A DNA stretch of 64,000 bases from Chryseobacterium sp. ON_d1 (lineage in GTDB: Bacteria > Bacteroidota > Bacteroidia > Flavobacteriales > Weeksellaceae), in the NCBI RefSeq assembly GCF_006829085.1, contig NZ_BJTC01000004.1:1-64000 (forward strand), in the 5' to 3' direction. The position numbers were made by a program, and so were the translations under genes. The number at the start of each line of letters is the position of its first letter. Positions within the stretch are counted from its first letter, which is position 1. The notes under the pieces were generated by a model, which did not search any database, had not been told where the DNA came from, and saw only the letters and a list, made by a program, of their open reading frames with translations. This document shows positions 4,883 through 29,509 of this stretch, one piece after another.

Positions 4883-7078
4883 ATGTCAACCTTAAGATTC
4901 AAAGCGTTAGAAACCCTACCATTTAAGGATTTCAGAAGAGATAACTCTATTGAAGTTCCTGTAAAGTTATCAGAATTATTCTGCCAAAATGTTTTCTCAG
5001 AAGAAACAATGAGAGAATATTTAACGAAAGAAGCATTCCAGTCTATTATGGATGCGGTAAAAAAAGGGACTAAAATCCAGAGACACATTGCAGACCAGGT
5101 AGCTGTAGCAATGAAAGACTGGGCAATGAGCAAAGGAGTAACTCATTATACACACTGGTTTCAGCCTTTGACAGGGACAACTGCAGAAAAGCACGATTCT
5201 TTCTTCACTCCTATCGAAGGAGGCAGAGCTATTGAAAGATTCAGCGGAAACTTATTGATTCAGCAGGAACCGGATGCATCTTCTTTCCCGAACGGAGGAA
5301 TCAGAAACACTTTCGAAGCCAGAGGTTATACCGCATGGGATCCTACATCTCCGGCTTTCATCATGGGAACTACATTATGTATCCCATCTATCTTCATCTC
5401 TTATACCGGAGAAACTTTAGATTATAAAGCTCCTCTTTTAAGAGCTTTGAATGCTGTAGATGAAGCGGCGACCAATGTAATGCAGTATTTTGACAAAAAC
5501 GTAACAAAAGTAACTCCTACTTTAGGTTGGGAGCAAGAATATTTCCTGGTAGATTCAGCATTATACCAGTCTCGTCCGGATCTTGTATTAACAGGTAAAA
5601 CTTTGCTTGGACATTCTCCTGCAAAAGGACAGCAGCTGGATGACCACTATTTCGGTTCAATTCCTACAAGAGTAATGAACTTTATGAAAGAGTTGGAAAT
5701 AGAATGTATGAAATTGGGTATTCCTGTAACCACAAGACACAACGAGGTAGCTCCAAACCAATTTGAGCTGGCTCCAATGTTCGAGGAAGTAAACGTTGCT
5801 GTAGACCACAACTCTTTGTTGATGGACATCATGGCAAGAATTGCTCACAGACACCATTTCCACATTTTGTTCCACGAAAAACCATTCGCAGGAGTAAACG
5901 GAAGCGGAAAACACAACAACTGGTCTCTAGCTACTGATACTGGTGAAAACCTTTTAAGCCCAGGAAAAAATCCTAAGAAAAACCTACAGTTCTTAACATT
6001 CTTCGTGAATACAATTAAGGCTGTTCATGAATATGCTGATCTTTTAAGAGCAAGTATCGCTTCTGCAAGCAATGACCACAGATTGGGTGCCAACGAAGCT
6101 CCACCGGCAATTATTTCCGTATTCATCGGAAGCCAGCTGTTCAGCGTGTTGGAAGAACTTGAAAAAGTAACTGAAGGGAAACTTTCACCGGACGAAAAAA
6201 CAGATTTAAAATTAAATGTTGTTGGAAAAATCCCTGAAATCCTGTTGGATAATACTGACAGAAACAGGACTTCTCCATTTGCATTTACAGGAAATAAATT
6301 CGAGATCAGAGCGGTAGGTTCTGCTGCGAACTGTGCAGAATCTATGACGGTAATGAATACGATCGCAGCAAAACAATTAAATGATTTCAAAAAAGAAGTA
6401 GATGCTTTAATTGAAACGGGGCTTAAGAAAGACGAAGCTATCTTTAATGTATTGAGAGAATACATCAAGCAGTGTAAAAACATTATGTTTGAAGGAGACG
6501 GATATTCTGATGACTGGGCGAAAGAGGCTAAGAAAAGAGGATTGAACAACCTTAAAACAACTCCTGAAGCATTAAAGCAGGAAATGGACAAAAAATTCCT
6601 TGCCCTTTATGAAGAAATGGGAATTTTCAACCACAGAGAAGTAGAGGCAAGAAACGAAATCAAATTAGAAAAATATTCTACTGTTATTGATATTGAAGCA
6701 AGAGTTTTAAGTGATATTGCAAGAAACCATATCATTCCATCTGCTTTAAACTATCAGAACAGATTAATTGAAAACGTAAAAGGCCTTAAAGATATCTTTG
6801 GCGATAAAGAATTCAAACCATTGGCAAAAGAGCAGATGAGTTTAATTACAAGCATTTCTGAAAATGTTTCTAAAATTAAGCTTGGTGTTGAAGATCTTAT
6901 CAAAGCCAGAGAAGCAGCAAAAGGTATAACCAACAGCCAAAAACAGGCAGAAAGCTACTGCAATAAAGTAAAGCCATTATTTGATCCGATCAGAGAAGCT
7001 TCTGATGCGTTGGAAATGATGGTTGACGATGAGCTTTGGCCAATGACAAAATACAGAGAAATGTTGTTCACAAAATAA
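4883..7078 (+). CDS. glnN: Glutamine synthetase type III
   Basis: A 731-aa protein, the size of GSIII and far longer than GSI (about 470) or GSII. It makes glutamine from glutamate, ammonia and ATP in the cytoplasm and forms dodecamers in characterised homologues. Visible family sequence includes WFQPLTGTTAEKHDSF (about 92-107), the Glu/ATP-site stretch GWEQEYFLVD (about 212-221), HNEVAPNQFELAP (about 286-298) and NGSGKHNNWS (about 338-347), followed by the RLGANEAPPAI segment. It is monocistronic, with its own promoter and a strong terminator at 7104-7130. No glnB/amtB genes are nearby. A palindrome at 4771-4782 may be a control site. Confidence 0.95.
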   Translation: MSTLRFKALETLPFKDFRRDNSIEVPVKLSELFCQNVFSEETMREYLTKEAFQSIMDAVKKGTKIQRHIADQVAVAMKDWAMSKGVTHYTHWFQPLTGTTAEKHDSFFTPIEGGRAIERFSGNLLIQQEPDASSFPNGGIRNTFEARGYTAWDPTSPAFIMGTTLCIPSIFISYTGETLDYKAPLLRALNAVDEAATNVMQYFDKNVTKVTPTLGWEQEYFLVDSALYQSRPDLVLTGKTLLGHSPAKGQQLDDHYFGSIPTRVMNFMKELEIECMKLGIPVTTRHNEVAPNQFELAPMFEEVNVAVDHNSLLMDIMARIAHRHHFHILFHEKPFAGVNGSGKHNNWSLATDTGENLLSPGKNPKKNLQFLTFFVNTIKAVHEYADLLRASIASASNDHRLGANEAPPAIISVFIGSQLFSVLEELEKVTEGKLSPDEKTDLKLNVVGKIPEILLDNTDRNRTSPFAFTGNKFEIRAVGSAANCAESMTVMNTIAAKQLNDFKKEVDALIETGLKKDEAIFNVLREYIKQCKNIMFEGDGYSDDWAKEAKKRGLNNLKTTPEALKQEMDKKFLALYEEMGIFNHREVEARNEIKLEKYSTVIDIEARVLSDIARNHIIPSALNYQNRLIENVKGLKDIFGDKEFKPLAKEQMSLITSISENVSKIKLGVEDLIKAREAAKGITNSQKQAESYCNKVKPLFDPIREASDALEMMVDDELWPMTKYREMLFTK

Positions 7079-7103
7079 CACCTGTAAAGTTCCATATTAG
7101 TTT

Positions 7104-7131
7104 AAATTCCCCGTAAATCGGGGAATTTTTT
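7104..7131 (+). terminator. Terminator of glutamine synthetase
   Basis: AAATTCCCCG (7104-7113) pairs with CGGGGAATTT (7119-7128) around a 5-nt loop, followed by T-rich sequence. Confidence 0.9.
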
Positions 7132-7196
7132 ATTTAGATTAAAATACTAATAGACAAAGACTTCCAGAACTTCAAAATTCATACAGAATTTAATTT

Positions 7197-7204
7197 TACC
7201 TTTG
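7197..7204 (+). promoter_or_regulatory. -7 element TACCTTTG for the regulator-efflux operon
   Basis: Exact TAnnTTTG match only 8 nt before the ATG at 7213, implying a very short or absent 5' leader. Confidence 0.6.
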
Positions 7205-7212
7205 CTTTCATT

Positions 7213-7905
7213 ATGAAAATCCTGATCATAGAAGACAACAAAGAACTTGCCCAAAGTATGAGATATTATCTTGAAGGCGAGAACTACATCTGTGAATGCG
7301 CTTACCACTACCACGAAGCCCTGGAAAAACTCAGCTTCAATTCGTATGACTGTATTCTATTGGATATCATGTTGCCCGACGGAAACGGATTAAACATTTT
7401 GAATTATATTAAAACCGAAAAAATCGGCAGTGGAATTCTCATTATTTCTGCAAAAAATGCCTTAGATGATAAAATCAACGGGCTGGAACGCGGCGCAGAC
7501 GATTATATCACAAAACCCTTCCATTTACCGGAATTACACGCCAGATTAAGAGCCGTCTACCGAAGGAAAAAAATGGATGGCTATAGTGAAGTCAAATTCA
7601 ATGAAATCATTTTAAACACTGATACCTACGAAGTTGTTATTAACGAAACAAGGTTAGAAGTCACCCAAAAAGAATTTGAACTGTTGCTGTATTTTCTCGT
7701 CAACAAAAACCGTGTATTATCAAAACAGTCTATTGCCAATCATCTCTGGGGTGATTATACTGATAATTTAGCTAATTTTGACTTTGTTTATCAGCATGTT
7801 AAAAATCTCAGAAAAAAAATTGGCGCTGCTCAGGGAAAAGACTATATCGAAACCATTTACGGGTTAGGCTACAAGTTTAATGCTTTAAAATATAACGGTT
7901 CATGA
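7213..7905 (+). CDS. OmpR/PhoB-type response regulator
   Basis: A 230-aa two-domain regulator. The receiver domain (1-118) has acidic residues at 7-8, phospho-acceptor D51 (LLDIMLPDG), S79 and K101 (ITKPF). A winged-helix DNA-binding domain follows (about 130-225), with NRVLSKQSIANHLWG and the DYIETIYGLGYKF hairpin. It is first in a five-gene operon ending with an RND efflux system, so it very likely controls that pump in response to the sensor kinase encoded next. Its stop overlaps the kinase ATG (ATGA, 7902-7905). Confidence 0.93.
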   Translation: MKILIIEDNKELAQSMRYYLEGENYICECAYHYHEALEKLSFNSYDCILLDIMLPDGNGLNILNYIKTEKIGSGILIISAKNALDDKINGLERGADDYITKPFHLPELHARLRAVYRRKKMDGYSEVKFNEIILNTDTYEVVINETRLEVTQKEFELLLYFLVNKNRVLSKQSIANHLWGDYTDNLANFDFVYQHVKNLRKKIGAAQGKDYIETIYGLGYKFNALKYNGS

Positions 7906-9254
7906 ATTTATTGAATAAAATATCTGTCTGGTTTATCGCCATTGTATTGCTGGTCACCCCCGTAAGCATGTATATATCATATACCGGCATCAAAAAAAGA
8001 CTTGATAATGTTGAGATAGAAAGACTGAAATCCGTTAACAGTTATGTTATCAGCCAGCTCCGGAAAGGAGAAACTCCGGCAAAAACCTCACAGGGACTGC
8101 CTATTACCATAAGCCCCTTTCAAGGAAAAAATATTCCTTCAGAACCGCAAATTATTCACACATGTCTTGAAGATCAGGGAGTTTCCAGAAATGAATGTAA
8201 AATCCAGATCAACTCTTTCGCAGACATTGACAGCAAAATCTATAAAATTTCTTCATACGCCTACATCACAGCCACAAAAGAAATCATGGGAGGCATGCTG
8301 ATTGCCCTTTTCTGGAAACTTTTATTAATCACAGCCGTTGTTTTTATTACCGCTCGTATTTTGTCTAAATTTATATTAAAACCTTTTCATCACGCAATTG
8401 ACCGACTTCAGAAATTCAGCATCCAGAAAAAAGAAAGGCTTGACCTTTTACCCACAAGCACAAAAGAGTTTAAAAAATTAAATGAATTTCTGAAAACAAT
8501 GACAGACAAAGCCCTGGAGGACTATGCTTCTGTGAAAGAATTTTCCGAAAATGCCTCGCATGAAGTCCAGACGCCTTTGGCCATCATCCAAAGTAAAATT
8601 GAGTTACTGGCAGAAACAGAGATCAATGAAAACCAAGCAGTTTTATTAACCGACATTCAAAACTCCATCGATAAATTAAGCAGAATAAACCGCTCATTAA
8701 TCCTGCTGACAAAACTCAACAACAACGAATTCCCCACCCATGAGGAACTAAAATTCTGCCGTGTGGAAAGAGAAGCTTTATGCATGTATTCCGATCATTT
8801 AGCCTTAAAGAACATTACTTTAAACAGAAATTGCGAAAAGAATGTTTACATTAAAATCCACCCTACTTTAGCAGAAATTCTATTGAGCAATCTTCTCTCC
8901 AATGCCATTCGCCACAATCTTGAGGGTGGAAAAATTGAAATTAATTTAACCCGGAATTATTTTCAGATCAACAACACCGGTCTGCCTCCCCACGTTCCCA
9001 CCCAGGAACTATTTAAAAGATTCAAGAAAAGCAATCAGGCACAGGAAAGCATTGGGCTCGGACTTTCCATTGTCAAACAGATCTGCGAGGTAAATGATTT
9101 TGCAGTTCATTATGATTTTGCAGATGGATGGCACAGTATCACGGTATATTTTGACGGCAACAATATGCATGCAGCTTCAATTTCTGAAAAAACATCAGCC
9201 GAAAATACCACCGCTTTTGAACCCATAGAACAGATGGTAAATTTTGCTAAATAA
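7902..9254 (+). CDS. Sensor histidine kinase
   Basis: A 450-aa inner-membrane kinase. Two membrane segments (about 8-28 and 132-152) flank a periplasmic sensor of about 100 residues containing C88 and C99. A short HAMP-like linker leads to the HisKA domain with phospho-acceptor H220 (ENASHEVQTPLA) and a HATPase domain with the N box (LLSNLLSNAIRHN) and GLGLSIVKQ. Translationally coupled to the response regulator. Placement in front of a tripartite pump suggests it senses a pump substrate or envelope stress. The two sensor cysteines could bind metal or form a disulfide, which is inference. Confidence 0.92.
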   Translation: MNLLNKISVWFIAIVLLVTPVSMYISYTGIKKRLDNVEIERLKSVNSYVISQLRKGETPAKTSQGLPITISPFQGKNIPSEPQIIHTCLEDQGVSRNECKIQINSFADIDSKIYKISSYAYITATKEIMGGMLIALFWKLLLITAVVFITARILSKFILKPFHHAIDRLQKFSIQKKERLDLLPTSTKEFKKLNEFLKTMTDKALEDYASVKEFSENASHEVQTPLAIIQSKIELLAETEINENQAVLLTDIQNSIDKLSRINRSLILLTKLNNNEFPTHEELKFCRVEREALCMYSDHLALKNITLNRNCEKNVYIKIHPTLAEILLSNLLSNAIRHNLEGGKIEINLTRNYFQINNTGLPPHVPTQELFKRFKKSNQAQESIGLGLSIVKQICEVNDFAVHYDFADGWHSITVYFDGNNMHAASISEKTSAENTTAFEPIEQMVNFAK

Positions 9255-9334
9255 TTAGGTATCGATATCAATTTTTCAACTTCAAATTTGCTTCAAAATG
9301 TATTTTTTACTTTGAAAAAAGAAAAATACGTTAG

Positions 9335-10726
9335 ATGCTTTCAAGAATTTTTATTCTCGCCTTATCATCCGTTTTTTTTGTCAACACAGCAAAAGCACAG
9401 GAAGTCCTCACATTGCAATCTGCACTGGAAACTGCTGTTCAAAATTACGGAACCATCAAAGCCAAAGAATCTTACCGGCTGTCATCACAGGAATCGATAG
9501 AACTGGCAAAACGGCAATATTTGCCTAATCTTAACATCAGTCTGCAGCAGGATTACGGAACCGTCAACGGACAAAACGGTCCTTTGTATGGATTCGGAGG
9601 ATATGGAGTCGCTTCATCCGGACTCCCGCTTCCGGATCAAAACTGGAACGCTTCTTTTGGAGCTTTATATTTAGCGAATATCAATTGGGAATTTTTCTCT
9701 TTCGGAAAAGCAAAACAAAGAGTAAAAGTCGCAGAATCCAAGAATCAGAGAGATACCCGGGACTTATCCGATGAAATCTTTCAGCATAAAGTCAAAGTTG
9801 CTGCCGCATACCTGAATGTTTTAGCGGCAAAAAAATTGAAGCAGTCTTATGCCCGCAATCTCGGAAGGACCGATACCATCAGAAGAATTGTTGAAGTAAA
9901 AGAAAGAAACGGTCTCGTTGCCGGGGTTGATCTATCCCTAGCAAAGGCAGATTATGCCAATGCTATGATTACGTATACCAAAGCAAAAGACAACGAACAG
10001 GAACAGGAAAATAAACTGGCTCAGCTGCTGGGAATCCCGGCACAGGAATTCGTTTTGGACAGTACCTTACTGAAAAGGATTCCGACCGATTTTCCCAATC
10101 AAAATATTTCTTCTTTGGAAAGCCATCCATTGCTGGCTTTATATAAAAGCAGAATCAACGTAAGCGAACAGGAAAAGCAATTTCTGAAAACACAGTACTA
10201 TCCGTCATTTTCCATGGTGGGCATTTTCCAGACAAGAGGTTCCGGGTTTGGAAGCGGCTATGCTCAAAATCAAAGTGATTATTCCACCTCGTACTGGGAC
10301 GGAATTCATCCTACAAGAAGCAATTACCTGTTGGGGCTAGGCGTTTCATGGAATTTTACCCAGACATACAGGTTGTCAAAGGAAATCAGTGCTCAGGATT
10401 ATATAAGCCAGGGGCTGAAACACGAATATGATCTTGCTGAGCAGCAATTAAAAGCCCAATTGGATTTATCTGAAAACAAATGGAAAAACGCCATAACGGT
10501 CTATGATCAGGTTCCCATTCAGCTTAAATCCGCAAATGACGCATACATCCAAAGGTCTGTTTTATATAAAAACGGACTGACTGATCTTGTGGATCTGTCT
10601 CAGGCCATTTATGCTTTGGTAAGAGCAGAAACCGACAGAGATATTGCCATCAGTAATGTATGGAATGCTTTATTATTGAAAGCAGCAGCACTCGGTGATT
10701 TCACTGTTTTTGAAAACGAACTGTAA
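9335..10726 (+). CDS. TolC-family outer-membrane efflux channel
   Basis: A 463-aa protein with signal peptide (about 1-21, ending NTAKA). The family's two-fold repeated helical architecture is visible, with the usual start ALETAVQNYGTIKAKESYRLSS and long amphipathic helices around 100-240 and 330-460. It would form the trimeric channel through the outer membrane and periplasm for the RND pump encoded next. It lies 80 bp after the kinase gene and 32 bp before the pump gene, in the same operon. Confidence 0.92.
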   Translation: MLSRIFILALSSVFFVNTAKAQEVLTLQSALETAVQNYGTIKAKESYRLSSQESIELAKRQYLPNLNISLQQDYGTVNGQNGPLYGFGGYGVASSGLPLPDQNWNASFGALYLANINWEFFSFGKAKQRVKVAESKNQRDTRDLSDEIFQHKVKVAAAYLNVLAAKKLKQSYARNLGRTDTIRRIVEVKERNGLVAGVDLSLAKADYANAMITYTKAKDNEQEQENKLAQLLGIPAQEFVLDSTLLKRIPTDFPNQNISSLESHPLLALYKSRINVSEQEKQFLKTQYYPSFSMVGIFQTRGSGFGSGYAQNQSDYSTSYWDGIHPTRSNYLLGLGVSWNFTQTYRLSKEISAQDYISQGLKHEYDLAEQQLKAQLDLSENKWKNAITVYDQVPIQLKSANDAYIQRSVLYKNGLTDLVDLSQAIYALVRAETDRDIAISNVWNALLLKAAALGDFTVFENEL

Positions 10727-10758
10727 GGTTAACATCAATTAAAATCAATAGTATTTCA

Positions 10759-13700
10759 ATGAACTTAATAAGATTTGCATTAAGAAAACCCATTACGATT
10801 TTAGTGATCGTTGCCGGATTGTTTTTCTTCGGAATACGGTCTGTAAACTCCATTAAAGTCGACATTTTCCCCAAACTGGATCTACCGGTAATCTATGTTT
10901 CTCACCCTTTCAGCGGCTATACTCCGCAGCAGATGGAAGCATTCTTTGCCAAACAATACATCAATATTTTCCTTTTTGTAAATGGAATTAAAAGTATTGA
11001 AACCAAAAACATTCAGGGACTGACTTTAATGAAAATTAATTTCTATCCCGGAACCAACATGGCCCAGGCCGCAGCTGAGCTAAACTCATTCTCCACCAGG
11101 ATTCAGGCAGCTTTCCCCCCGGGTTCCAACCCTCCTTTTATCATACGTTTTGATGCCTCCACACTTCCGGTCGGGCAGCTTGTTTTAAGCAGTGATAAAA
11201 GATCAAACAATGAACTGCTCGATCTTGCTAACGTATATGTCCGTTCTACATTTACTTCAATTCCGGGAATTGTTTCTTCACCCCCTTTTGGAGGAAATAT
11301 CCGTACAGTTGTCATTAATGCCAATCCGGAATTACTTCGCCAGCATAATATGACACCGGATCAGCTTGTGGAAGCGTTGCGGCTGAACAACCAAACTGCA
11401 CCTTCCGGAAATGTAAGAATAGGAGACAAATACTATATTACTCCTACCAACACGATGATTAAAAATGTAAAAGATTTCGAAAACATTCCTCTCTACAAAG
11501 GCAGTGTTCAGAATCTTTATTTAAAAGATGTTGCGACAGTAACAGATGGAGCAGACATGACCTCGGGTTATGCCTTGGTAAATGGCAGACGTTCAGTTTA
11601 CCTGAGTATTGCCAAAAGCGCTGATGCTTCTACCTGGGACGTGGTTCAGAATCTTAAAAAACAATTGCCACAAATTCAGTCTAATCTTCCGGATGATGTG
11701 AAAGTAAGTTTTGAATTTGACCAATCCACTTATGTTATCAATTCCGTTAAAAGTTTATTGAGTGAAGGAACCATTGGAGCTGTTCTTACCGGATTGATGG
11801 TCATTTTATTCCTTGGGGATATCCGGGGGGCACTGATTGTGATTCTCACCATTCCCACATCCATCATTTCAGCGGTTTTATTTTTAAATCTTTTTGGGCA
11901 GACCATTAATATTATGACCTTAAGCGGACTTGCCCTCGCCATTGGAATTCTTGTCGATGAAAGTACCGTTACCATAGAAAACATTCACCAGCATCTGGAT
12001 ATGGGAAAACCAAAGTCCCTCGCCATCTGGGATGCGTGTAAAGAAATTGCCTTTCCCAAATTATTGATCTTATTCTGTATTCTTGCTGTTTTTGCACCTG
12101 CATTTACAATGGGAGGAATTCCCGGATCATTATTTCTACCTCTTGCCCTGGCGATTGGTTTCAGTATGATTGTTTCTTATTTTCTTGCCCAGACATTTGT
12201 TCCCATCATGGCCAACTGGATCATGAAAGTAAAGCATCATAAAGCAAAAGACGGCCATATTCTGACAGACTCTGAAGAGCTTCAGAAAGCAGAATTGAGT
12301 GATGAAAGTGATACTTGGAGTCAGAAAGAAATTCTATTGCAAAATGAAGACAGCAACCGCGACGGAAAAGTAAGTATGTTTGAAAAAATCAGGTTCCGTT
12401 ACCTGAAGTTCTTAGACAGGATCATGCCCTACCGAAAAATATTAGTCTCAGCTTATATTATATTAATGATGGGAATGGTGGCTTTATTTTTAAACAGTAT
12501 CGGACGGGATGTTTTACCTCAGGTGAACGGAAGCCAGTTTCAGGTAAGAATGCGTATTCCTGATGGAACAAGGATTGAAAAAACTGAGCTGCAGACATTG
12601 AAACTACTGGATGGCATTAAGGAAATTGTCGGAAAAGATAATGTTTCTATCACCTCTGCGTATGTAGGGACCCATCCCACTCTTTTCTCGGTAAGCCCTA
12701 TTTACCTATGGATGGCAGGTTCACATGAAACCGTTTTACAGGTTGGTTTAAATGAAGAGTATCATACCAATATGGATGACCTGAAAGATAAAATCCGAGA
12801 GAAGGCTAAAAGCATTAATCCTGATATGAAATTATCTTTCGAACCGATTGAATTGACAGAAAAAATTCTAAGCCAGGGATCCCCTACTCCCATTGAAGTA
12901 AGACTATCAGGAAGGGATAAAAGTGTCAATGAAGCGTATGCAAAGAAAATCGAGGCTGAGCTTAAAAAAATCCCCTATCTGAGAGACGTTCAGATCGGGC
13001 AGTCCATAAAATACCCGGCGTTGGATATAACCGTTGATCGTATTCGCGCAGCTCAGCTGGGAATCGATATGTCTGATATTTCCCGCTCACTGGTAGCTTC
13101 CACCTCATCATCCCGATTTACTGAAAAAAATATCTGGACAGATGAAAAAGCAGGTTACAGCTACAATGTTCAGGTTCAGATCCCTGAAAACAAAATGAAC
13201 AGCAAAGAAGAGATTGCAGGGATTCCTTTACAGAAAAACTCCAACAGACCTAACCTGGGTGATGTTGCAACGATTAAAAACAGTTATACATATGGAGAAA
13301 CTGATAATCTGGGCGCAATGCCAACCCTTACTGTGACAGCAAATCTTAATCACACTGACTTAGGAACAGCTTCGGGAGATGTGCAAAAAGTCATTGATAA
13401 TATGGGAGAACTTCCAAGAGGTCTTAACATTCAGCTGATAGGCTTAAGCCAGACTTTACATGAAACCTTAAGCAGCCTACAAAGCAGCCTGATTATAGCC
13501 ATTGTAGTCATTTTTCTAATGCTGGCAGCCAACTTCCAGTCCTTCAAGGTATCAGGAGTGGTTTTGGTAACAGCTCCGGCAGTCTTGGTTGGATCTCTTG
13601 CTTTATTGATCATCAGCGGATCAACACTTAATCTTCAATCTTATATGGGAATTATTATGTCCGTCGGAGTTTCAATATCCAATGCGGTTTTATTAATTAC

Positions 13701-26041: not shown

Positions 26042-27073
26042 ATGATAAAAAACGACCTATATTTAAAAGCACTTCGCGGAGAAACCGTTGAAAGACCTCC
26101 TGTCTGGATGATGAGGCAGGCTGGAAGATATCTGCCGGAATTCATTGCTTTAAGAGACCAATATGATTTCTTTACCAGATGCCAGACTCCTGAGCTTGCG
26201 GCTGAGATCACTTTACAGCCTATCCGCAGATTTCCTTTGGATGCAGCGATTCTGTTTTCCGATATTCTGGTAGTTCCACAGGCAATGGGTATTGATTTCA
26301 AAATGAAAGAATCTGTTGGTCCTTGGTTAGATACTCCTATCAGAACAATGGAACAGGTTCAGAACATTGAAACTCCGGATGTGAATGATACCTTAGGTTA
26401 CGTTTTTGATGCTATTGAACTTACACTTCAGAAATTGGACAATCAGATTCCACTGATCGGTTTTGCCGGTTCACCATGGACCATTCTTTGTTATTGCGTG
26501 GAAGGAAAAGGAAGCAAAGCATTTGATATTGCAAAATCTTTCTGTTTCCAGCAGCCTGAAGCAGCTCACCTTTTATTGCAAAAGATTACAGATACTACCA
26601 TTGCTTATTTAAAGAGAAAAGTAGAAAAAGGAGTTTCTGCTGTACAGATTTTCGATTCCTGGGGTGGAATGCTTTCTCCTACAGATTATCAGGAGTTCTC
26701 ATGGCAGTACATCAATCAGATCGTTGAAGCATTAAGTCCGCTTACCCATGTGGTAGTATTTGGAAAAGGATGCTGGTTTGCTCTGGAAGACATGACGATG
26801 TCAAAGGCTTCTGCTCTTGGTGTGGACTGGACCATTAAACCGGAATTCGCAAGAACACTGACCAACCATACAATGACGTTACAGGGGAACTTTGACCCTG
26901 CAAGACTTCATTCAACACCTGAAACCATTAAGAAAATGGTCAAAGAGATGATCAACCGCTTTGGAAAAGACAGATATATTGCCAACCTTGGACATGGCAT
27001 CTTACCTAATGTACCGGTAGAAAATGCTGAGGCATTTATCAGAGCAGTTGTTGACTGGAAACCCAATTTATAA
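26042..27073 (+). CDS. hemE: Uroporphyrinogen decarboxylase
   Basis: A 343-aa TIM-barrel enzyme converting uroporphyrinogen III to coproporphyrinogen III. Signatures are [16 protein letters not shown] near residue 20-35, [12 protein letters not shown] (about 76-87), [12 protein letters not shown] (about 140-151) and [13 protein letters not shown] near the C-terminus. Last gene of the hem operon, 31 bp after hemD, followed by a strong hairpin. hemB is not in this cluster. Confidence 0.96.
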
Positions 27074-27136: not shown

Positions 27137-27958
27137 CTATTTTTTGATAATTTTCTTCTTCAGAACTTCATTCTTATTATCCGTAATCACAACAATATAA
27201 GTTCCCTTAGGAATATCTGACACGTCATACGAATCAGATTCCTTATCAAACGTTTTTATGCGTTTTCCAGACATATCCATAACATTGATCATTTTAACCT
27301 TATTTTGGGCAGCCATTTTAATATGAATATTATCCCTTACCGGATTTGGATATATATTTATATGATCAGCATATGAAACTTCCCCCGTTGCCAAAGCTCC
27401 ACTTGTGATCATTACATTATCTACTACAACGCCGTAGGAATAATCCCCAGCGTCGTCATAAACAAATCTAAGCTTAAAAGCAGCATTAGCGTATGGAGTC
27501 AAATCTATATTGGCCGCTGTATCGTAAGCTGTTACCACATATGAAAAGGTATTAAAATCAAGATCCCAGACACCTGCATCGCCTGAAAAGGTAAAAACCT
27601 GAACCCACGAAGTTCCGTTAAAAACTTCAACTTTTAAAGTAGAGTCCAGATCATAAATCATATTGGCATAATTAAACGAAAGTTTTGGATTTGCAACTCC
27701 GTTAAGGTTAATCACCGGAGAAACCAATCTTGCATTTGCGTTAATTGCAGTTGGGCCAGCAGCATCATCGTCAAAAAAAGCTGCACCATCTGGAAAGCTG
27801 GCAAAGCCATTCTGAGTACCCACGTCCCAGTTATAAGATGTATCCGGATTTTCTACCGTCCATCCGGCTGGTAAAGAATTACTATTGAAACTTTCAGAGA
27901 AAACCTGTGCATCACATATTCCCCAGGTGGATAAAAATAAAATAAATAGTTTTTTCAT
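27137..27958 (-). CDS. Secreted protein with choice-of-anchor-J-like domain and T9SS type A sorting domain
   Basis: 273 aa: signal peptide (about 1-18), a jelly-roll domain (about 20-190) that opens with SESFNSNSLPAGWTVENP as in choice-of-anchor-J/cleaved-adhesin domains, then a C-terminal T9SS sorting domain (about 200-273) with INIYPNPV, MDMSGKRIKTF and PKGTYIVVI and a basic tail. It should cross the outer membrane through the type IX system and be attached or released there. Function is probably adhesion or carbohydrate binding (inference). A paralogue lies at 40877-41737. Confidence 0.88.
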   Translation of the reverse strand: MKKLFILFLSTWGICDAQVFSESFNSNSLPAGWTVENPDTSYNWDVGTQNGFASFPDGAAFFDDDAAGPTAINANARLVSPVINLNGVANPKLSFNYANMIYDLDSTLKVEVFNGTSWVQVFTFSGDAGVWDLDFNTFSYVVTAYDTAANIDLTPYANAAFKLRFVYDDAGDYSYGVVVDNVMITSGALATGEVSYADHINIYPNPVRDNIHIKMAAQNKVKMINVMDMSGKRIKTFDKESDSYDVSDIPKGTYIVVITDNKNEVLKKKIIKK

Positions 27959-28111
27959 AATAAAAATATTTGATGTTTATATAAAATTAACAAATTATAC
28001 CTTACAAAACATAATCATACACAAAATCAATACATTACTATTCATTGTAAAAAGAAACAGAATTTTTATCTATTATTTATACCTTTATGTCTAACCTTTA
28101 AATCACATCGC

Positions 28112-28234
28112 ATGAAAAAACTAAACAAACAAAAAATGAAAAAAATTATGGCAGGAGGAGATATCTGCCTTGAATGTGCTGAAGGATACCATCAGGTAAT
28201 TATTGAAGGGCGCTGTTCATGCATTCCGGACTAA
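28112..28234 (+). CDS. 40-aa double-glycine-leader, cysteine-rich peptide
   Basis: A 40-codon ORF with leader-like MKKLNKQKMKKIMAGG (1-16) and a 24-residue core from D17 carrying C19, C22, C35 and C37 (CLEC and CSC). The leader matches the bacteriocin-type double-glycine signal cut by ABC-transporter peptidase domains. Flavobacteria such as Chryseobacterium have families of similar small bacteriocin-like peptides. A near-consensus -7 element (TACCTTTA, 28080-28087) precedes it and a terminator (28239-28263) follows 4 bases after its stop, supporting a real monocistronic gene. No transporter or modification enzyme is nearby. Alternatives are a signalling peptide or metal-binding miniprotein. 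Confidence 0.7.
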   Translation: MKKLNKQKMKKIMAGGDICLECAEGYHQVIIEGRCSCIPD

Positions 28235-28238
28235 TAAA

Positions 28239-28266
28239 AAAAGCAGCCCAACCGGCTGCTTTTCTA
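28239..28266. terminator. Terminator after the 40-aa peptide gene
   Basis: AAAAGCAGCC (28239-28248) pairs with GGCTGCTTTT (28254-28263). It can serve both the peptide gene (+) and sufS (-); an A-rich run at 28234-28242 gives U's on the minus strand. Confidence 0.88.
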
Positions 28267-28288
28267 TTTATATCAGTATCGTTATTAA

Positions 28289-29509
28289 TTAACTCAACAT
28301 TCTCTGAGCTTTTTTAACTCCCTCTACCAAAATATCAATTTCTTCAAAAGTATTGTAAACCGCAAAACTTGCCCTTACCGTTCCTGCAATATTAAAGAAG
28401 TTCATGATAGGCTGTGTACAATGATGTCCTGTTCTTACAGCAACACCCATTTTATCAAGGATCATCCCTACATCAGAGGCAATCCCCACTCCTTCCAGAT
28501 TAAAGGAAACCACTCCGGTTCTTTTCGCTTTTTCACCATAGATTTTAATACCTTCCATTTCCAAAAGCTGTCTCTGAGCATATTCCAATAAAGCATTCTC
28601 ATGATTCTGAATGTGAGAATGACCTATTCTGTTCATAAAATCAACAGCTGCACCTAATGCAATATTTCCTCCTACATTGGGGGTTCCTGCTTCATATTTA
28701 AACGGAAGACCTGCATAAGTTGTTTCTTCAAAAGAACAGGTTGCAATCATTTCTCCTCCTCCATGAAATGGCGGCAAAGCTTCTAATACTTCTTGTTTTC
28801 CATATAAAATACCTGTTCCCATTGGAGCATACATTTTATGACCTGAAAACACAAAGAAATCACAATCCAGCTTCTGAACATCAATATTGAAATGTGGAGC
28901 GGACTGAGCTCCGTCAATAACAATATAAGCATCAGTATTCTTTCTTGTTTTTGCAATGATCTCCTCAACAGGATTGACAATTCCCAACGCATTGGAAACC
29001 TGGTTTACAGAAACAACTTTTGTTTTTTCACTTAAAAACTGATCAAAATAATCCATCTGAAGGATTCCGTTTTCATCAATAGGAATCACGCGAAGCTTTG
29101 CTCCCGTTCTTTCGCAAAGCATCTGCCATGGAACAATATTAGAATGGTGTTCAAGATATGAAATAATAATCTCATCATCTTTCTTCAGTTTCTGCGTTAA
29201 AATATAAGCGATAAGGTTCAGCCCTTCTGTTGTACCTTTTGTAAAGATAACTTCAAAATCATGTTCAGCATTGATGAATTTCTGGATCTTTCTTCTTGAA
29301 AGCTCCATTTCTTCAGTAGCCAGCTGACTTAGCGTATGAATTCCCCTATGAACATTGGCATTAATTTCGGTATAATATGCGTGACAAACTTCCAAAACCG
29401 AATTTGGCTTTTGAGATGTAGCTGCATTGTCCAGATAAACCAGTGGCTTACCATTCACTTCTCTATCCAATATAGAAAACTGGCTTCTTATTTCCTGAAT
29501 GTCAAACAT
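28289..29509 (-). CDS. sufS: Cysteine desulfurase SufS
   Basis: A 406-aa PLP enzyme that takes sulfur from cysteine for Fe-S cluster assembly. PLP lysine K225 is in FSGHKMY. Catalytic C364 lies in RTGHHCTQP, the group II (SufS/CsdA) arrangement with a short loop. YLDNAATSQKP at 25-35 is the family N-terminus. The other suf genes are not adjacent here, so this copy stands alone with its own promoter. CsdA-like function cannot be excluded. Confidence 0.93.
   Translation of the reverse strand: MFDIQEIRSQFSILDREVNGKPLVYLDNAATSQKPNSVLEVCHAYYTEINANVHRGIHTLSQLATEEMELSRRKIQKFINAEHDFEVIFTKGTTEGLNLIAYILTQKLKKDDEIIISYLEHHSNIVPWQMLCERTGAKLRVIPIDENGILQMDYFDQFLSEKTKVVSVNQVSNALGIVNPVEEIIAKTRKNTDAYIVIDGAQSAPHFNIDVQKLDCDFFVFSGHKMYAPMGTGILYGKQEVLEALPPFHGGGEMIATCSFEETTYAGLPFKYEAGTPNVGGNIALGAAVDFMNRIGHSHIQNHENALLEYAQRQLLEMEGIKIYGEKAKRTGVVSFNLEGVGIASDVGMILDKMGVAVRTGHHCTQPIMNFFNIAGTVRASFAVYNTFEEIDILVEGVKKAQRMLS

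What the first reader, a model, noticed from the sequence alone, without database searches (positions are those of the whole stretch)
28112..28234. Unlisted 40-aa double-glycine peptide with four cysteines
Seen: a leader-like MKKLNKQKMKKIMAGG, then a 24-residue core with CxxC and CxC, its own terminator 4 bases after the stop, and a near-consensus promoter. Known: double-glycine leaders are cut and exported by peptidase-containing ABC transporters. Inference: a secreted bacteriocin-like or signalling peptide whose exporter is elsewhere. No processing gene is in the window, so it is an orphan precursor.
Basis: partly seen in the sequence, partly recalled or inferred. Interest (0 to 1): 0.65.

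Follow-up and report, generated by a model that had tools for sequence, protein, structure and literature searches.

The report
Conserved exported cysteine peptide of Chryseobacterium
A tiny gene in a Chryseobacterium genome encodes a real, conserved peptide that is probably cut and exported by a transporter encoded elsewhere in the genome, one of many such cysteine-rich peptides in the genus; what it does outside the cell is not known.

Summary
The 40-aa ORF at 28112-28234 is real. Of 148 genus genomes sampled, 46 hold an intact copy, 2 a frameshifted copy, 2 a remnant, 98 none; 43 of 46 intact copies lie within about 1.5 kb of sufS. All four cysteines are kept in 46/46, under purifying selection (dN/dS about 0.15 in the core). 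It has a conserved terminator; its promoter is probably a flavobacterial TAnnTTTR box at 28080, not a sigma-70 site.

Against 65 related leaders only one register fits: Leu4, Met9 and Ile12 at -12, -7 and -4, with Ala14-Gly15 at -2/-1. The GG register would put an invariant lysine at -7. Predicted leader 15 aa, core 25 aa; the conserved pair is Ala-Gly (43/46).

It is an outlying member of a known kind. The same genome has at least 18 more cysteine peptides with such leaders, and a VKOR-thioredoxin / C39-ABC / HlyD operon on another contig. All 48 genomes with a copy have a VKOR-Trx match (broken in one) and a C39 domain. Export and disulfide formation in trans is inferred, not shown. Activity is unknown: the core is acidic in all 46 copies, but so are 37 of 72 relatives.

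The parts
28112..28234 (+). peptide gene, 40 codons plus stop TAA
   Evidence: 46 intact orthologues
28112..28156 (+). predicted leader, residues 1-15, ending Ala14-Gly15; Leu4 = -12, Met9 = -7, Ile12 = -4
   Evidence: recognition rule from passages of PMC6363468 and PMC10885120
28157..28231 (+). predicted exported core, residues 16-40 (GDICLECAEGYHQVIIEGRCSCIPD); cysteines at residues 19, 22, 35, 37
28080..28087 (+). TACCTTTA, resembling the flavobacterial -7 box TAnnTTTG
   Evidence: consensus from passages of PMC9723704
28239..28263 (+). intrinsic terminator between the convergent peptide gene and sufS
28289..29509 (-). sufS cysteine desulfurase, convergent neighbour and syntenic anchor (not part of the system)
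26042..27073 (+). hemE, upstream syntenic anchor (not part of the system)

Best explanation
The gene makes a precursor of a small exported peptide. The lysine-rich N-terminus is a leader of the type read by C39-peptidase ABC transporters (PCATs): Leu4, Met9 and Ile12 face the peptidase, which cuts after Gly15, not after Gly16. The 25-residue core, a probable hairpin with four cysteines, leaves through an ABC/HlyD exporter made elsewhere in the genome (contig C17) and is oxidised to two disulfides by the VKOR-thioredoxin protein of the same operon. It belongs to a dispersed set of at least 19 such peptides in this genome served by that operon. Outside the cell it acts on a conserved partner; I lean slightly to a signalling or modulating role over killing. 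Shown: gene, conservation, leader register, presence of the machinery. Inferred: cleavage, export in trans, disulfides, role.
For: 46 intact orthologues of 148 genomes, cysteines 46/46, core dN/dS 0.15, leader 0.28. Leader matrix from 65 leaders: +15.8 on average in one register, below -20 in the other eight tried; an unguided alignment gives the same register. Three of 72 related peptides have AG at -2/-1 with no GG after it. C39-ABC, VKOR-Trx, HlyD and a leader peptide adjoin on C17; 8 of 10 island stretches fetched from other genomes show VKOR-Trx, leader peptides, C39-ABC and HlyD together. VKOR-Trx match in 138 of 148 genomes and in all 48 with a copy; C39 in 145 of 148 and all 48.
Against: No transcript, peptide or cleavage was observed. 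The usual site is GG, GA or GS; Ala at -2 is outside it. One intact copy has Val-Glu at 14-15. The link to the C17 exporter is by leader type, not by position; the genome has a second C39 exporter in a class I lanthipeptide locus. VKOR and C39 are near-universal in the genus, so co-occurrence is weak evidence (chance 0.017 that all 10 VKOR-less genomes are non-carriers, ignoring kinship), and the VKOR match of one carrier, G062, is broken by stops. NCBIfam's leader model does not match the window peptide. The structure model is of low confidence (pLDDT 64.7).
Confidence: 0.66

Rival explanations
1. It is a bacteriocin: the exported core kills relatives, with self-protection encoded elsewhere or by target variation.
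For: Bacteroidetocins share a 15-aa leader, four cysteines, an ABC/peptidase and a thiol oxidoreductase, and kill Bacteroidales (PMC6671954, passages). NCBIfam calls its relatives 'bacteriocin-like protein'. Patchy presence, 48 of 148.
Against: No immunity gene was seen between hemE and sufS. Core strongly conserved at one locus and acidic in 46 of 46, though 37 of 72 relatives are acidic too. Mature length 25 versus 42-48 aa in bacteroidetocins.
Confidence: 0.35
2. One reading: a true double-glycine leader, cut after Gly16, giving a 24-residue core.
For: Residues 15-16 are GG in 37 of 46; GG fits the textbook motif.
Against: Residue 16 is T, R or D in 8 of 46 while 14-15 are AG in 43 of 46; in this register -7 is an invariant Lys and -12 a polar residue (N, S, D, T or K); matrix score -22 on average.
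Confidence: 0.15
3. It is not exported: a small cytoplasmic metal-binding protein (CxxC and CxC holding zinc or an iron-sulfur cluster), perhaps tied to the neighbouring cysteine desulfurase SufS.
For: Invariant CxxC/CxC; sufS within about 1.5 kb in 43 of 46.
Against: The N-terminus matches exporter leaders in one register only. sufS is in 148 of 148 genomes, the peptide in 48; two MAGs carry it away from sufS. The two genes are convergent, not co-transcribed. Family hits to zinc proteins are far below any cut-off.
Confidence: 0.1
4. The precursor is exported by the lanthipeptide C39 transporter on contig C7 instead of the C17 operon.
For: It is the only other C39 domain found in the genome.
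Against: That locus holds a lantibiotic dehydratase, a LanC-like cyclase and its own lanthipeptide precursor and no VKOR gene was seen in the stretch listed.
Confidence: 0.1

Closest known systems
NCBIfam NF047798 leader_Chryseo ('bacteriocin-like protein' of Chryseobacterium)
   Same: Same genus, small cysteine-rich peptide, same leader pattern KKL-x4-[LM]K-x-I; 20 of 42 family members match weakly (best E 0.0011).
   Different: The window peptide itself gives no match at E up to 10; leader is three residues shorter; AG rather than GG at -2/-1; fixed place next to sufS.
Bacteroidetocins (class IIf bacteriocins of Bacteroidetes, PMC6671954)
   Same: 15-aa leader, four cysteines, ABC/peptidase and thiol oxidoreductase in the pathway (passages).
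   Different: Core 25 versus 42-48 aa; exporter not adjacent; no killing shown; sequences not compared here.
PCAT (C39-ABC) double-glycine leader peptides, e.g. LahT substrates (PMC6363468)
   Same: Hydrophobic residues at -4, -7 and -12 before a small-small pair.
   Different: Ala instead of Gly at -2 in 43 of 46 copies.
NCBIfam NF047792 CCPGW family putative bacteriocin
   Same: One of 42 members matches weakly (E 0.04); similar leader.
   Different: Different core; cut-off (80 bits) not approached by the relatives scanned.
Pfam DUF4762 (PF15959)
   Same: Matches residues 1-37 at E 0.0088; 5 of 42 members match at E up to 1.
   Different: 16.4 bits against a cut-off of 27.

Membership tests
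NF047798 leader_Chryseo | score at or over 23.5 bits | tested here: not met
   window peptide no match at E up to 10; best of 42 members E 0.0011, weaker than a 20.8-bit match at E 0.00031
PCAT leader peptide | hydrophobic residues at -4, -7, -12 | tested here: met
   I/V/M, M/L and L/M/I in 46 of 46 in the Ala14-Gly15 register
PCAT leader peptide | GG, GA or GS at -2/-1 | tested here: not met
   AG 43, GG 1, GA 1, VE 1 of 46; AG also in 3 of 72 relatives
PCAT leader peptide | C39-ABC exporter in the genome | tested here: met
   two in own genome; 145 of 148 genus genomes, all 48 with a copy
PCAT leader peptide | cleavage by the C39 domain | not testable with these tools
   needs enzyme assay or mass spectrometry
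Bacteroidetocin (class IIf) | leader of 15-16 aa and at least two cysteines | tested here: met
   15 aa predicted, four cysteines; definition
Bacteroidetocin (class IIf) | mature peptide about 42-48 aa | tested here: not met
   25 aa predicted
Bacteroidetocin (class IIf) | ABC/peptidase, TM and thiol oxidoreductase genes close by | tested here: not met
   neighbours are hemE, a T9SS-sorted protein and sufS; exporter on another contig
Bacteroidetocin (class IIf) | anti-Bacteroidales activity | not testable with these tools
   needs a bench assay
DUF4762 | score at or over 27 bits | tested here: not met
   16.4 bits

The most novel reading that the evidence does not exclude
A C39-transporter leader family with a fixed Ala-Gly cleavage pair: the conserved signal is AG at -2/-1 with the following Gly only a frequent +1 residue. 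One VKOR-thioredoxin/C39/HlyD operon per genome would process in trans a dispersed set of twenty or so disulfide-rich peptides, this one kept at a fixed chromosomal place as a genus-level extracellular signal.
Probability: 0.4. Interest if true: 0.55.

Novelty: new member of a known kind. Interest (0 to 1): 0.4.

Why it matters
If right, a genome scan for 'GG' both misplaces the cut and misses real precursors, because the hydrophobic positions and not the glycines define the site. It also points to a compact, testable system: one disulfide-forming exporter serving many scattered cysteine-rich peptides across Chryseobacterium, with this peptide as the one kept at a fixed place under strong selection. 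The nine papers searches made here found none that describes it, in an open-licence library only.

Tried and rejected
Sigma-70 promoter: at chance. Rfam: 0 matches at 27900-28350. Solved structures: two hits, E 0.032 and 0.48, judged chance. AlphaFold2 with 42 sequences: pLDDT 64.7, only the hairpin 26-31/34-39 near 80; too weak for a fold search, which I did not run. NCBIfam and Pfam on the window peptide: nothing over a cut-off. Co-occurrence with the exporter: too common in the genus to be informative. Horizontal spread into non-carriers: sufS tree gives 15 changes versus 40.8 on average (minimum 32) for shuffled labels; with the shared place and two remnants I read this as old presence and repeated loss, but one gene tree cannot tell gain from loss. 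A link to SufS function: rejected, see rivals.

Weak points of my own tests: the 300 dN/dS pairs and the 46 promoters are not independent; the promoter and terminator shuffles keep only base composition; the leader set was chosen by its first seven residues (MKN[LFI]xx[LIM]), so column 7 is partly circular; one of the 72 relatives (residues 17-18 KK) is doubtful, and relatives score from -12.9 with a median of 28.5, the window peptide 11.95 being below that median; the island stretches were picked because a weak relative lay near a C39 gene.

Full report
What is there. The ORF at 28112-28234 encodes MKKLNKQKMKKIMAGGDICLECAEGYHQVIIEGRCSCIPD. It is convergent with sufS (28289-29509, minus strand) and lies beyond a T9SS-sorted protein gene (27137-27958, minus strand) and hemE (26042-27073); names by NCBIfam. 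A terminator stem sits at 28239-28263.

It is a real gene. A search of 148 genomes of the genus with the 40-aa peptide gave 101 with some match at E <= 1, most of them weak. Reading 49 loci closely gave 46 intact copies (42 distinct proteins), 2 frameshifted near the start (L016, L046) and 1 remnant with a lost start and a stop (L051); a second remnant (L251) appeared later. So of 148: 46 intact, 2 frameshifted, 2 remnants, 98 none. sufS lies within about 1.5 kb in 43 of 46; the exceptions are one genome with sufS 3.4 kb away and two MAGs with the peptide elsewhere. The cysteines are invariant in 46 of 46; NG86 dN/dS over 300 related pairs is 0.28 in residues 2-16 and 0.15 in 17-39. A profile search of 320 family genomes found 59 with strong matches (E <= 1.3e-15), all in the same genus; the three matches outside it were weak (E 0.003-0.004). 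A scan of named genomes gave 34 loci, 33 titled Chryseobacterium and one Weeksellaceae MAG.

Expression signals. 45 of 46 orthologues have TAnnTTTR 18-60 bases before the ATG (shuffles 9.9, maximum 20), 20 of 46 have exact TAnnTTTG (shuffles 2.1); TAnnTTTG is the sigma-A -7 box of flavobacteria (PMC9723704, passages seen). The window has TACCTTTA at 28080-28087. 44 of 46 have a terminator-like stem after the stop, 0.2 expected from shuffles.

The leader register. I collected 72 distinct cysteine-containing peptides with MKN-type leaders from island stretches and from this genome (65 distinct first-22 segments). Their positions 7, 12 and 15 are hydrophobic, 17-18 are GG in 47, GA in 12, GS in 7, AG in 3, other in 3. 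Sliding the 42 family proteins over this matrix without gaps gives +15.8 on average in one register and below -20 in the other eight; leaving the glycine columns out gives +12.3 against below -15. MAFFT finds the same register unaided. It places Leu4, Met/Leu9 and Ile12 at -12, -7 and -4 and Ala14-Gly15 at -2/-1. These are the positions that LahT reads, where Lys at -4 or -7 blocks or strongly impairs cleavage (PMC6363468, passages; PMC10885120, passages). Conservation agrees: residues 14-15 are AG 43, GG 1, GA 1, VE 1 of 46, while residue 16 is G in 38 and T, R or D in 8. Two copies without GG at 15-16 have ordinary GG and GA at 14-15. Against: Ala at -2 is outside the described GG/GA/GS set, and one copy has Val-Glu.

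The machinery. This genome has two C39 domains. On C17 (L055) stand a VKOR-thioredoxin gene (5907-7421), a C39-ABC transporter (7610-9805), a cysteine-rich leader peptide (9876-10070) and an HlyD gene (10091-11413). On C7 (L056) a lanthipeptide precursor, a lantibiotic dehydratase, a LanC-like protein and a C39-ABC transporter. A pattern for MKNLKK found 23 sites in the genome, none with the reversed control pattern; 18 distinct cysteine-rich leader peptides come from these loci, scattered singly or in small groups. In other genomes VKOR-Trx, arrays of such peptides, C39-ABC and HlyD stand together in 8 of 10 stretches fetched for that purpose; one was VKOR only in the 8 kb taken, one had a C39 fragment. 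A VKOR-Trx match is in 138 of 148 genomes, C39 in 145 of 148, both in all 48 with a copy, one of which (G062, 75% complete) has its VKOR match broken by stops. In bacteroidetocin loci a thiol oxidoreductase is thought to form the disulfides (PMC6671954, passages). I infer the same here.

The locus in other genomes. In 7 of the 98 non-carriers the same spot, 65-81 bases from the sufS stop and convergent with it, holds a different leader peptide with a canonical GG (MKNLKKIQRENLKQVLGGHTCPANTYHITYNGYHACC...). They stand near each other in the sufS leaf order. Whether it is a diverged orthologue or a replacement is open; two longer family members (L047, L049) carry an extra cysteine tail that could link them.

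What it does. Not known. The core is a predicted short hairpin at moderate confidence, net charge -2 to -4 in 46 of 46; 37 of 72 relatives are also acidic, 25 are basic, so charge alone does not decide. Strong conservation at one place, and no immunity gene seen beside it, lean me to a signal or modulator over a toxin, but only slightly.

Verdict. Real, conserved, and a new member of a known kind (PCAT-type cysteine-rich peptides of Chryseobacterium), with an off-by-one correction to the cleavage site that makes Ala-Gly the conserved pair.

Noticed in passing
L055:5907-11413 (own genome, contig C17): VKOR-thioredoxin / C39-ABC / cysteine-rich leader peptide / HlyD operon; probable shared exporter and oxidase for scattered peptides.
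   Followed up: yes
L056:7052-13808 (own genome, contig C7): Class I lanthipeptide locus: precursor (NF038153), lantibiotic dehydratase, LanC-like protein, C39-ABC transporter.
   Followed up: partly
L061 (own genome, contig C2 near 388140): 94-aa leader peptide whose core is a long run of GGVVGG-like repeats ending in three or so cysteine motifs, unlike the other cysteine-rich peptides.
   Followed up: no
L212, L230, L235, L240, L273, L275, L279: A different GG-leader cysteine peptide at the same place beside sufS in 7 genomes without the window peptide.
   Followed up: partly
L121, L122: Peptides with AG instead of GG at the leader end and no following glycine (ITAGNAPCCEPWG, ITAGDAPCCEPWG).
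   Followed up: partly
window 27137-27958 -: T9SS-sorted choice-of-anchor protein gene between hemE and the peptide; detected in only part of the orthologous loci.
   Followed up: no
G030:C2:2891-5415: Two divergent-strand sufS-like copies side by side, one with four in-frame stops.
   Followed up: no
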